In this document: positions 10,219-16,505 of the stretch, one piece after another
How the letters are laid out: every line of letters begins with the position of its first letter
Position numbering within the stretch: position 1 is the stretch's first letter
Source: Acanthamoeba sp. SK_2022b
Taxonomy: Eukaryota > Discosea > Longamoebia > Acanthamoebidae
Assembly: GCA_027943245.1 (NCBI GenBank)
Contig: JANDJZ010000170.1
Location: 1-64,000 of the forward strand
DNA length: 64,000 bases
Direction of reading: 5' to 3'
Translations under genes and position numbers: made by a program
The notes under the pieces: model-generated
The model's input: only the letters and a program-made list of their open reading frames with translations
Told to the model about the DNA's origin: nothing
The model's database searches: none

Positions 10219-11109
10219 CTAGGCCCGCACGAGAAGGATGCCATTCGCGACGAGACTGCGCGCCAGCACCTCCTTCTCGGCCCACGTCTCCAGCGGCACA
10301 TCCCCTGTTTGAGAGAATGATCAGAGAGAGAGAGAGAGAGAACGTGTGGACACGACAGTGAAGGGTACAGTGGCCGGCCAACAACCAGATGCGTGCGTAC
10401 CCAGCTTGGTCCACTCGTTGCCGTTGAGCAGGATGAACTCAATGCCCACGGCAGACTGCGCAATAAATGAATAAATAAAATATAAAGAAAGAAAGAAATG
10501 AATAATAAATAAATGAATAATAAAAAGGGAAGGCTGGCGTACGTCGAGAGGGAACTCGAGGGACTGCGGCTGCTTGGCGTCGTAGGTGCGCGGATTGCCG
10601 GCGGCGTAGTAGAGCACCGCCGCCTCTGCCTCGACCACCAGCCGCTGAGCTTCTCTACGCAGCAGCCTCACCTCGGTCGACTCCGTGAGCTGCTCTCCCC
10701 CAAGCACAACGTAAGAAAAAGATTGATTAAAACACAAAACAAACAACAAATTAATATAATAATTATTAATTCTATTATCTTGTGGGAGCACCTTGGCCTG
10801 CTTGCTGCGGGCCAGCGCCTGGAGCTCGTCGGCGGAGAGGAAGGGCGGGAGGCAGTTGTGGATGTACTGGATGCCCATGCGATCGGCGGCCAGGTCCACG
10901 GGCATCGCCTGAAGGTCGGGTCGCAGGCGTCAGTCCATTTTCTGCGCCTCGGCCGGCATCGCACAACAATGGGGAGGGGGCAAGGTTGCGGGATGGCCTG
11001 CGCGGTACCGCAAGAACGCCTTCCAGCAGGTGCTTGTAGGACTCCAAGAAGGCTCCTCTCTCCTCACGCAGCGCCTGCTCGCGCGATCGTTATTAAAACA
11101 TGCCCTCGG

Positions 11110-11178
<69 letters not shown>

Positions 11179-11875
11179 GTTACCCTCAGCTTGGACTTGG
11201 CTGCCCCCAGGAACTGGCCGTACTGGCGCGGCAGAGACGAGACCAACCCAAAGTCGTCCTCGGCCACCTCGATCCCGCGCGGCACCATCTGAATGCGTGG
11301 GCGGGCATAGGGCGCGGGTGAGGGGAGTGGTCACAACATTGGGCGGGCACACGCCCTCCCGCGCACGCAAAGGACGTGCGGGCAACCTTCTCCAGCAGAT
11401 CGATCCACGAACAGCACTGGGCCGTCGAGACCGTCAAGTGCAACGAGTGCGTGTCCTCCGTCGCCACCGCCTAACGCAAACGCAAACGTTAGCCAGCGGG
11501 CACGGGCACGCATGTTCACGCGACGCGAACCTGGTGGATCCACCCGCGAGGGAAGTAGAGGAAGTCGCCGGCGTGCAGCACGACGTCCATCACCACCTCG
11601 CCGATCTCGTTCTGCTCAAAATTGCCTGCACAGACGCACGCCACACGCACGCATCAGCGATCGAGTGCGTAACGCAAGGGAGTGGGGATTGGGAGGGGGG
11701 TTTGCGGCGCACGGTCGCGCACGTACGGGAGGAGAAGCGAGGCAGGGTGGATGACTCGTCCAGAGGCGCGTAGAGTCGCCACCTCTTGCTGCCCTCCAAC
11801 TGCAGAACAAACGCCTCGATGTCGTCTGTCGATACAAAAACACACAGACTCGTCAATCAACATTGTATCCTCAAG

Positions 11876-14208: not shown

Positions 14209-14268
<60 letters not shown>

Positions 14269-16505
14269 CAGCCACACAAGGCCACGCAACCCGAGCCTAC
14301 CCCCGTTCTTGTTGACTCGATCGCGCAGATCGTCGTACTGTGCCATCCAATCGCCGAGGTCAAAGTGCAACCGTCCGTAGAGCGACGACTTCCTGTGAGT
14401 GGGGGGGGGTTGGAGGGTGTCGGTTGCCAGTCACGCAGCGCGCGCGCGCGTGCGAGGAAGAACACGTACGCAAACTTGTCGGCGGCGGAGTCGATCCACT
14501 GCGAGATCTTGAATCTGCCCTCGCCCGAGTCGATGTCCAGCACAGAGCCAAACAGCTCGCTCACCTGCTCCATGAAGCCGTCGCGCCTCGGGTCGTCCTG
14601 CGCATCGTGCCGCCAATCAGAGTTCAGAATTCAGAATTGTGGTTTCCCAAACGTTTCGTTTCATTTTAGAAAACGAAAGATACGACGCGCACCTCTCGGT
14701 CAGAGTGGACCAGGCCCATGTACTGCTGGTAGTTCATCGGAAGGGTCTTGCGCGCCTGCGGAAACACACGAAGTCGTTGTGTGATGCGTGGGAACGACAC
14801 GATCGCGAGACTGTGTGGGCGTGGCGCGTTACCTCGAGGTTCTCCCTCTCCAGACACTGCATGGCGGATGCGATCGTGTCCTTGAACAGGCGACTCCACG
14901 TGGCCCTCTTGCCCGGCGCCATCAACACGTGAAGCGAGTGCTTGGCCGCCTCGGCGGAAGACCCGCTGTGGATGGGCGTCAGGGTGAAGGCCACCTGCTT
15001 GGGGATGTAGGCCAGGTCACCCGCACGGAGCGTGTACTCGTCCATCTCCTCCACCATCTCCCCGGCCTCCATGTCCTCCTCCTCCTCTTCCTCTTTCTCC
15101 TCCTCCTCCTCCTCCTCACCGTCTTCATCATTCTGACGTGCGGGTCTCTCTGCGTTATGTTAAATAAATTAAATAAATAAGATTTTTTAGGAAATAAACA
15201 GTGGATTTTCGGAAATAAAAACAGTAAAAAAATGTACACGAGGTGGTCGTACTTGTGAAGACTCTGAGGAGCTGTGCGCCCTCGCACTGGAAGATGAAGA
15301 CATCGACGGACAGCTCCTCGCGCTGGTCGGCCGCCGCTGGCGCGCCAAAGAGGGAGACCGACGGCGACGCCGAGCTCGCCTGGGTTCCGGAGGACGAGGA
15401 TGACGACAACGAGTCTGTTGCGGCAAAGGGCGAGGGAGTGGCGGCCGCCGGGATGTCAAAGGTGACGGACGAAGGGGCCGCGAGATTGGAGAAGTCTAAG
15501 AGCGACGCAGATGACGACGATGACGATGACGATGCTGCGGTGGATGACGACGACGAGAAGTCAAAGAGGGAGGACGACGTCGACGTGGTGGCGGAGGCGG
15601 GTATCGTGAGATTGGAAAAGTCGAACGCCGGAGCCGGAGCCGGAGCCGAAGTGGTGGCGGCGGCAGGGGCGGAGGGTGAGGACGGGACGGGAGCGAGGAC
15701 GAGCTCGAGAGAGGAGCCCGCGGCGCCCCAGAAGGCGTCGGTGAGGGCGAGAAGGCGGCCCAACGAGGGCACGAACGAGGCAAAGTTGAAGAAGCGTATC
15801 TGCGGCAGTGATCCCCCACGACCACCTTTCAGCGTTTGTGCAGCGCTACAGTATGCGTGAGGGAAGAGGCAACGAACCGTGTGGCCCTTGTTGACGAACG
15901 AGTAGACAGCGTCGGAGGTCACGGGGATCTTGCGCGAAGGCAGACCTGTGTGGCGTTTGAGAGAATAATATTTAAATTTTAATTTTAAATAAAAATTAAT
16001 AAATAATGATAATCATAGAGCAGGTGGCACCTTGCGTGCGTGGGCAGATGGAGGGCTTGGGCAAAACGAGGACGTCGTCCTTGAAGACCACCGTGCTCTG
16101 ATGGCCAGTGCCATCCAAGATGGCCTTCAGCTGGCCCTGCCAGTCGCCAAACACGTTCGTCTTCACGAAATCGGCGGAGCTGCCGTCCTCCTGGCCTTCA
16201 ACTTCTTCGCCGTCCTCGTTCTCGTTGTTGGCCACCAGAACTTGCTTTCCCTCGAATTCCTCCTCGAACTCTTGGATGCTGAGCGGCGCGAGCATGTGGC
16301 TGAAGAAAGCTTCCGCCTCATCTCTCGACGGCAGTGCCAGTGTCGAATCGAACAGTCCGTAGAGCTGCTCACCAGCGGCTCTGGCAGTAGCGGCAGCCAT
16401 CTCAACTTCCTTCTTCCGGCGCTTCAAATCTCCGGATGAAGACGATTTTGATCCACTGCTCTTGCCACCACGCTTCTTTGATGGTATGGCCCACCTCCTC
16501 TTCAT
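10219..16505 (-). CDS. Triple 2-oxoglutarate-oxygenase-like fusion: degenerate JmjC, P4H-like domain, RIOX1-type JmjC
   Basis: Many-exon gene. N-terminus MKRRWAIPSKKRGGKSSGSK with a second KRRKK cluster, nuclear-signal-like. Module 1 (about 16400-14290) follows the RIOX/NO66 order: SRDEAEAFFSHMLAPLS, then a long Ser/Ala/Pro insert, VDVFIFQCEGAQLLRVF, DLAYIPKQVAFTLTP, KHSLHVLMAPGKRATW and FDLGDWMAQYDDL. It lacks HxD and the distal His. Module 2 (14165-12985) is a prolyl-hydroxylase-like domain: LLKISNFLPEPVARRILHTF, HIAAHDDK (HxD), YVPEFNSLVAFNVPRDHV, RYSIFGWML. Module 3 matches RIOX1: FFDKYWEQAPLFVQRN, KTHNPVGRAEPEVVQQFF, YLTPASTQGFSPHYDD (HxD), IEAFVLQLEGSKRWRLY, FLYFPRGWIHQ (distal His), HSLHLTVST, then the winged-helix-like tail to LVANGILLVRA. 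One exon (about 13010-12690) spans the module 2/3 boundary without a stop, and the 1/2 boundary is a checked in-phase splice (NGG, then LLKIS). Known RIOX1 hydroxylates a His of ribosomal protein uL2 in the nucleolus; that function for module 3 is inference. Confidence 0.8.
11112..11180. repeat. (TG)n microsatellite in an intron of the oxygenase fusion
   Basis: TG run; on the sense strand the intron begins GTAACACACGCACAC directly after the codons for SKLR and ends in a normal CGAGCAG acceptor. Confidence 0.9.
11876..11940. repeat. (TG)n microsatellite in the intron splitting the HYDD motif
   Basis: TG run (sense CA) within the intron that interrupts the Asp codon of the RIOX1-type HxD motif; both splice sites are canonical. 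Confidence 0.9.
14211..14266. repeat. (CA)n microsatellite in the module 1/2 junction intron
   Basis: CA run (sense TG) in the intron that joins the degenerate JmjC module to the prolyl-hydroxylase-like module. Confidence 0.9.

What the first reader, a model, noticed from the sequence alone, without database searches (positions are those of the whole stretch)
10219..16505. Three 2-oxoglutarate-oxygenase modules in one polypeptide, ending in a RIOX1-type JmjC
Sequence shows one splice-consistent minus-strand gene with, in order, a RIOX/NO66-like cupin, a prolyl-hydroxylase-like 2OG-Fe(II) domain with HxD and distal His/Arg, and a complete RIOX1-like JmjC with winged-helix-like tail. One exon runs across the second boundary without a stop, and the first boundary is an in-phase splice. 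RIOX1 (uL2 His hydroxylase) and OGFOD1/TPA1 (uS12 Pro hydroxylase) both modify ribosomal proteins. A fusion of a P4H-like and a RIOX-like domain suggests a single ribosome-modifying machine. I know of no described protein with this order.
Basis: partly seen in the sequence, partly recalled or inferred. Interest (0 to 1): 0.8.

Follow-up and report, generated by a model that had tools for sequence, protein, structure and literature searches.

The report
Dead-RIOX1, prolyl-hydroxylase and RIOX1 fusion
A eukaryote whose identity was not established makes one long protein that joins a likely ribosome-modifying histidine hydroxylase to an oxygenase of the prolyl-hydroxylase type and to a worn-out, probably inactive copy of the first enzyme, an arrangement we did not find described.

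Summary
The minus-strand gene 16505-10219 splices, with 26 GT-AG introns, into 1234 codons. A 1209-aa homologue (P0001) on a 3775-nt contig, free of intron residues, carries the same modules, and no indel falls on any of the 26 junctions: one mRNA is very likely. The C-terminal module is RIOX1: NO66 E 2e-95, 4 of 4 Fe/2OG and 9 of 10 uL2-contact residues kept; a uL2 gene of the same genome carries the NHQH target. The middle module is a PHD-fold 2OG-Fe(II) oxygenase with its ligands intact, from a family seen mainly in green algae. OGFOD1/TPA1 and a PhyA/EGLN-like enzyme have separate genes. The N-terminal module is not a third working oxygenase: it is a degenerate RIOX1 copy (NO66 E 3.6e-18) without HxD or the 2OG lysine, its dimerisation hinge better kept than its core (p 8e-4, post hoc). 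P0108, a distant partial relative, shows dead-RIOX plus P4H without visible RIOX1. Best reading: a two-activity oxygenase scaffolded by a dead copy. The P4H's substrate is unknown.

The parts
10219..16505 (-). Whole coding region, 27 exons, 1234 codons plus TAG
   Evidence: Splice model; homologue P0001 agrees at all 26 junctions
16407..16505 (-). Basic N-terminal stretch (residues 1-33), NLS-like by eye; start codon uncertain
   Evidence: Sequence; RIOX1 N-terminal extensions carry a nucleolar signal in PMC6006756 (passages)
14357..16385 (-). N-terminal module: degenerate RIOX1 copy (JmjC plus hinge, no winged helix), residues about 41-540
   Evidence: phmmer to human NO66 3.6e-18, to MINA 6.5e-9; hhalign probability 99.6%, P4H control 2.6%, 50 column shuffles at most 1.4%
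15329..15682 (-). Ser/Ala/Pro-rich low-complexity insert (residues 221-338) where the HxD-bearing strand of RIOX1 would be
14392..14901 (-). Hinge/dimerisation region of the dead module (residues 447-533), better kept than its JmjC core
   Evidence: 15 of 21 vs 29 of 97 strongly conserved RIOX1 columns kept, Fisher p 8e-4, tested after seeing the alignment
12956..14370 (-). Prolyl-hydroxylase-like 2OG-Fe(II) domain (residues 541-756), PF13640
13499..13507 (-). P4H Fe ligands H-D-D (residues 670-672)
   Evidence: Invariant in A1 (12 rows) and A2 (9 rows with the window); coordinates
13115..13117 (-). P4H distal His (residue 730)
   Evidence: Invariant in A1 and A2
13001..13003 (-). P4H Arg of RYSIFGW (residue 741), expected 2OG contact
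   Evidence: Invariant in A1 and A2; role recalled
12821..12955 (-). Linker between P4H and RIOX1 (residues 757-801), inside exon 14
   Evidence: the same uninterrupted exon is seen in P0110 and P0122
10222..12820 (-). Complete RIOX1 module (JmjC, hinge, winged helix; residues 802-1234)
   Evidence: phmmer NO66 4y4r 2e-95; 4 of 4 Fe/2OG and 9 of 10 uL2-contact residues; 33 of 43 RIOX1-versus-MINA columns are RIOX1-type
10222..10689 (-). RIOX1 C-terminal winged helix
   Evidence: PF21233 3.4e-15; the only PF21233 match found in the genome

Best explanation
The gene makes one protein: [catalytically dead RIOX1 copy: JmjC remnant + dimerisation hinge] - [active prolyl-hydroxylase-type 2OG oxygenase] - [active RIOX1]. 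The RIOX1 half hydroxylates the conserved histidine of the NHQH loop of uL2 (inferred from residue conservation). The middle domain hydroxylates a second protein, most likely one met in the nucleolus or on the ribosome, but not uS12, for which a separate OGFOD1 exists (inferred). The dead RIOX1 copy is kept as a scaffold: its hinge supplies part of the RIOX-type oligomer that RIOX1 needs for activity, and holds the P4H next to it (inferred). Shown here: a single open frame, very probably a single transcript in a relative, homology of the three modules, catalytic residues present in two and missing in one. Not shown: any activity, substrate or assembly.
For: Single chain: splice model and P0001. 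RIOX1 activity: E 2e-95, residues 4 of 4 and 9 of 10, NHQH in uL2 on C323; no second RIOX1 found in the genome. P4H activity: HxD, His, Arg invariant in both alignments. Dead copy: NO66 3.6e-18, hhalign 99.6% with negative controls, HxD and Lys lost. Hinge kept preferentially: 15 of 21 vs 29 of 97 in the window, p 8e-4; 13 of 21 vs 28 of 97 in P0001, p 0.006 (the two are close relatives, not independent). Between window and P0001 residues 471-545 are 92% identical, residues 41-470, which hold the low-complexity stretches, 74%. NO66 needs oligomerisation through the hinge (interface I) for activity (PMC4556315, passages and section 3.3).
Against: No experiment. The hinge statistic was chosen after seeing the alignment, rests on few columns and on a very divergent sequence. 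The C module keeps its own hinge about as well (16 of 21), so it may dimerise by itself; two of the three interface-I residues tested by mutation in NO66 (F450, R452, P455) differ in the C module and two differ in the N module. P0108 carries a dead-RIOX/P4H pair with no RIOX1 in the stored 369 aa, and its hinge is poorly kept (4 of 21, partly gaps), so the dead copy may serve the P4H rather than RIOX1. The fold of P0108's RIOX part was not modelled with confidence. The P4H substrate is a guess, and its fold does not exclude an OGFOD1-like use (OGFOD1 is match 7 of the Foldseek list).
Confidence: 0.55

Rival explanations
1. The dead RIOX1 copy serves the P4H, not RIOX1: an older two-domain protein (dead-RIOX plus P4H), comparable to OGFOD1 with its metal-free second DSBH, became fused upstream of RIOX1, and the three parts work largely side by side.
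For: P0108 has the dead-RIOX/P4H order in a distant organism (P4H 43% identical) and its stored sequence stops after the P4H; its RIOX part alone matches the RIOX1 profile at hhalign 97.4%. OGFOD1's C-terminal DSBH lacks a metal site and packs on the catalytic domain (PMC4396695, passages).
Against: P0108 comes from a 1204-nt contig, so RIOX1 may simply be cut off. The window's dead module keeps its hinge (15 of 21), P0108's does not (4 of 21, partly gaps).
Confidence: 0.3
2. Two or three neighbouring genes wrongly joined by the splice model.
For: Start codon and promoters were not determined; no RNA of this organism was read; that P0001 is a transcript is inferred from the missing introns.
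Against: P0001 carries all modules on one contig without intron residues, while P0110 and P0115, near-identical pieces of the same type of gene, show intron-derived residues; exon 14 runs from P4H into RIOX1 also in P0110 and P0122.
Confidence: 0.03
3. The fusion is an accident without function: the modules are drifting.
For: Module 1 has lost its catalytic residues and gained long low-complexity stretches.
Against: Between window and P0001 the P4H (546-775) is 87% and RIOX1 (804-1234) 91% identical, the linker (776-803, 23 aligned columns) 39%; catalytic residues of both are kept.
Confidence: 0.07

Closest known systems
RIOX1 / NO66 (uL2 His216 hydroxylase)
   Same: C module: JmjC, hinge and winged helix, 4 of 4 Fe/2OG and 9 of 10 substrate-contact residues; target motif NHQH in a uL2 of the same genome
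   Different: Carries about 800 extra residues in front: a degenerate RIOX1 copy and a P4H domain. RIOX1s as described have one JmjC behind an N-terminal extension (184 residues in human; PMC6006756 passages)
OGFOD1 / TPA1 (uS12 prolyl 3-hydroxylase)
   Same: PH-type catalytic domain next to a metal-free DSBH; acidic insert in the dead domain (PMC4396695 passages); Foldseek match 4nhy 2.5e-8 to the P0108 model
   Different: Order reversed, the dead domain is RIOX1-derived, no Ofd1_CTDD; a separate OGFOD1-type gene lies on C379
2OG-Fe(II) oxygenases of green algae (e.g. Chlamydomonas reinhardtii CHLRE_03g186100, P0120)
   Same: Closest sequence relatives of the middle module apart from the fusion itself, 41-48% identical in the named algal hits
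   Different: Mostly single-domain in the hits seen, but the search admits only proteins up to 1.75 times the query length; P0107 carries glycosyltransferase domains behind it. No function known to me
PPHD (EF-Tu), PhyA (Dictyostelium), EGLN/PHD prolyl hydroxylases
   Different: Sequence relation marginal (PhyA 6t8m E 0.0078); a PhyA/EGLN-like gene is separate (C247)
RIOX2 / MINA53
   Same: Same ribosomal-oxygenase superfamily
   Different: Both RIOX modules score better to NO66 than to MINA; a RIOX2-like gene lies on C248

Membership tests
RIOX1/NO66 (C module) | Fe ligands HxD...H and 2OG lysine | tested here: met
   positions 340, 342, 405, 355 all identical. Numbering counted on chain 4e4h; the 13 residues named in PMC4556315 all fall on the expected letters
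RIOX1/NO66 (C module) | uL2-contact residues of the complex structure | tested here: met
   9 of 10 identical; Q260 is R, and varies in the other RIOX1s shown. The RIOX2-like C248 protein and MINA differ at 272, 274, 297, 299 and 376
RIOX1/NO66 (C module) | Hinge and C-terminal winged helix | tested here: met
   PF21233 3.4e-15, NO66 alignment over residues 806-1233
RIOX1/NO66 (C module) | Hydroxylation of uL2 His | not testable with these tools
   Target motif NHQH is present in uL2 on C323
RIOX1/NO66 (N module) | Homology closer to RIOX1 than to RIOX2 | tested here: met
   3.6e-18 vs 6.5e-9; 14 RIOX1-type vs 5 MINA-type of 43 diagnostic columns, 24 neither; tree 95/97 with RIOX1s on a very long branch, unresolved in the second tree
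RIOX1/NO66 (N module) | Fe ligands and 2OG lysine | tested here: not met
   HxD absent (gap, or E and L), Lys355 is Gln; a His aligns at 405 only across a gap
OGFOD1/TPA1 (P4H module) | Ofd1_CTDD domain after the catalytic domain | tested here: not met
   No PF10637 in the protein at E up to 1; it lies on C379 in a separate gene
PhyA/EGLN prolyl hydroxylases (P4H module) | Clear sequence homology | tested here: inconclusive
   PhyA E 0.0078 while the C247 gene scores 1.6e-17 to PhyA
PF13640 2OG-Fe(II) oxygenase (P4H module) | Profile match over the curated cut-off and HxD...H...R | tested here: met
   60.1 bits vs 27; invariant residues

The most novel reading that the evidence does not exclude
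A single-chain ribosome oxygenase: the dead N-terminal RIOX1 copy pairs, hinge to hinge, with the active C-terminal RIOX1 in the same chain, replacing the usual homodimer, and clamps between them a prolyl hydroxylase of an uncharacterised family that modifies a second, unknown site of the translation apparatus, so that two oxygen- and 2OG-dependent marks are laid down by one enzyme.
Probability: 0.25. Interest if true: 0.75.

Novelty: new variant of a known kind. Interest (0 to 1): 0.6.

Why it matters
The RIOX1s that I know of are single-JmjC homo-oligomers. A natural chain that holds one working and one dead RIOX1 makes the role of oligomerisation directly testable, and the prolyl hydroxylase tied to it points to an unknown hydroxylation target, possibly ribosomal, for an enzyme family without a function known to me. 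It would also be a case where oxygen and 2OG could control two marks through one protein.

Tried and rejected
Rejected: P4H = OGFOD1/TPA1 (separate gene, no CTDD), though the fold alone does not separate them (OGFOD1 is not among the 50 rows, which proves nothing). P4H = PhyA/EGLN orthologue (separate gene on C247, with an equal Pfam score on C646; whether those contigs are the host's was not checked). N module = unrelated cupin (RIOX1 homology). N module = RIOX2.

Checked on review: the C248 gene, which I first called RIOX2 by eye, scores alike to NO66 (1.3e-72) and MINA (7.9e-72) and is mixed at 43 diagnostic columns (17 RIOX1-type, 14 MINA-type, 12 other), but groups with MINA and P0106 in a tree (91/98 and 89/83), has MINA-like or other letters at five uL2-contact positions, and no RIOX1 winged helix was found there; I call it RIOX2-like. 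C616 and C899, also JmjC_2 matches, are JMJD6-like and JMJD5-like. C151 and C555 are, by reading, bacterial contigs.

Origin of the P4H: no relative in viral contigs (pattern-based scan); one locus in genome contigs, on a 'Verrucomicrobiaceae' MAG contig whose other frames look eukaryotic to me (by eye).

Inconclusive: trees: the N module sits on branches of about 8-10 changes per column; N and C modules as one clade are not rejected (p-AU 0.149); the three N modules are not recovered as one clade. Structure of P0108 (mean pLDDT 67, pTM 0.56): P4H part mostly above 90, RIOX part mostly below 50, so no fold evidence for the dead module. Literature: listings show no paper on such a fusion, and one search found no paper; only an open-licence library was searched.
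Full report
What is there. On the minus strand, 16505-10219 splices into one frame of 1234 codons: 27 exons, 26 introns of 60-140 nt, all GT-AG. Thirteen of the 26 introns would bring a stop if retained. Pfam finds PF13640 (656-748), JmjC_2 (best stretch 908-1032) and RIOX1_C_WH (1134-1231).

One polypeptide. Of 107 proteins found with residues 545-1234 (7993 candidates scored), one, P0001, carries both PF13640 and JmjC_2; a second search with residues 350-762 among longer proteins found P0001 alone. 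P0001 is 1209 aa on a 3775-nt contig, so its introns are gone; I read it as a transcript contig (that the source tag 'lgn' means the Logan assemblies is recalled). It is 80% identical over residues 47-1233, and no indel falls on any of 26 junctions (25 of 26 windows without a gap; the other has a one-residue indel four residues off the junction). By segment the identity is 74% (41-470, with low-complexity stretches), 92% (471-545), 87% (P4H, 546-775), 39% (776-803, 23 aligned columns) and 91% (RIOX1, 804-1234). P0110, P0115 and P0122 are protein records with intron-derived residues; P0110 and P0122 run through exon 14 from P4H into RIOX1 as the window does, P0115 does not reach it. RIOX1 homology of the first module ends at about residue 533, at the exon 6/7 junction, and homology to algal P4Hs begins at residue 543 in exon 7; the second border lies inside exon 14.

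C module. It is RIOX1: human NO66 2e-95, MINA 6e-49; 33 of 43 columns that separate RIOX1 from MINA are RIOX1-type, 3 MINA-type, 7 other. All four Fe/2OG positions and 9 of 10 residues named as uL2 contacts in the NO66-Rpl8 structure (PMC4556315, section 3.3 read) are identical; the tenth, Q260, varies among the RIOX1s shown too. NO66 recognises NHXH (same paper, abstract passage). Of five uL2 matches in the genome I read two: C735 looks bacterial, and C323 reads ...HPHGGGNHQHIG... by my translation. No second RIOX1 was found (these searches score best candidates only). C248 holds a RIOX2-like gene: its scores to NO66 and MINA are nearly equal, but it groups with MINA (91/98) and lacks the RIOX1 letters at five uL2-contact positions. 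C616 and C899 are JMJD6- and JMJD5-like.

N module. With low-complexity stretches cut out it finds human NO66 at 3.6e-18 and MINA at 6.5e-9. Profile comparison gives 99.6% (RIOX1), 96.9% (two RIOX2-like rows), 66% (two YcfDs), 2.6% (P4H control), and 50 column shuffles reach at most 1.4%. A 118-residue Ser/Ala/Pro-rich insert lies where the HxD strand should be; H340 and D342 fall on gaps or on E and L, K355 on Gln; a His aligns with H405 only across a gap. It keeps 2 of the 10 uL2-contact residues. It has no winged helix; the P4H stands in its place. Of columns conserved in at least 80% of 22 RIOX1 references it keeps 15 of 21 in the hinge and 29 of 97 in the JmjC part (p 8e-4); P0001's copy keeps 13 of 21 and 28 of 97 (p 0.006); the C module keeps 16 of 21 and 83 of 97 (p 0.33). 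This test was chosen after seeing the alignment. So the hinge of the dead copy looks selectively kept, while the C module's hinge is not lost.

A distant relative. P0108 (369 aa, 1204-nt contig) has a RIOX1-like stretch followed by the P4H and ends there; its RIOX part alone matches the RIOX1 profile at 97.4%. By my reading of the letters it too lacks the first Fe His and has Gln for the lysine. Its hinge is poorly kept (4 of 21, partly gaps). Either RIOX1 is cut off by the contig end, or a dead-RIOX/P4H protein exists without RIOX1 and the window's gene arose by fusing it to RIOX1. Its P4H identity (43%) is no higher than that of algae.

How it probably works. Established: RIOX enzymes need oligomerisation through the hinge for full activity (PMC4556315 passages; PMC6182338 passages). 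Inferred: the dead copy contributes its hinge as partner or scaffold; RIOX1 hydroxylates uL2; the P4H, brought to the same place, hydroxylates a second protein. The alternative, that the dead copy serves the P4H as the metal-free DSBH serves OGFOD1 (PMC4396695 passages), is about half as likely to me.

Limits. No RNA of this organism was read. Organism not identified (without a match; 86, 88, 90 unanswered). Origin of the dead copy by internal duplication is neither shown nor rejected (p-AU 0.149). Absence from print rests on listings (and, empty; one search also listed none) in an open-licence library, and on passages of PMC6006756, which treats Riox1/Riox2 architecture and whose main text does not contain the words amoebozoa, Acanthamoeba or Dictyostelium.

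Noticed in passing
G000 contigs C151, C555, C735 (L001, L002, L034): Contigs of the assembly that look bacterial by reading (YcfD-type genes without introns, a bacterial-looking uL2): the eukaryotic assembly seems to hold bacterial contamination or associates.
   Followed up: partly
window 8498-9217 (+): LanC-like gene (LANC_like PF05147, E 3.7e-20) about 1 kb beyond the 3' end of the fusion gene and convergent with it.
   Followed up: no
window 16940-17206 (+): First part of a Ras-type small GTPase gene (PF00071, E 1.3e-4), divergent from the fusion gene with about 440 bp between the two starts.
   Followed up: no
window 59625-61439 (-), 31226-32674 (-): Long uninterrupted reading frames (605 and 483 codons) without a Pfam match at E up to 0.001.
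   Followed up: no
L039 (JAIYDP010000275.1), 2974-3762: A 'Verrucomicrobiaceae' MAG contig carries a stand-alone member of the P4H family beside eukaryote-looking frames; probably a mis-binned eukaryote.
   Followed up: partly
G000:C248:59700-63100 (L033): RIOX2-like gene whose whole-sequence scores to NO66 and MINA are nearly equal (1.3e-72 and 7.9e-72): an intermediate-looking ribosomal oxygenase.
   Followed up: partly
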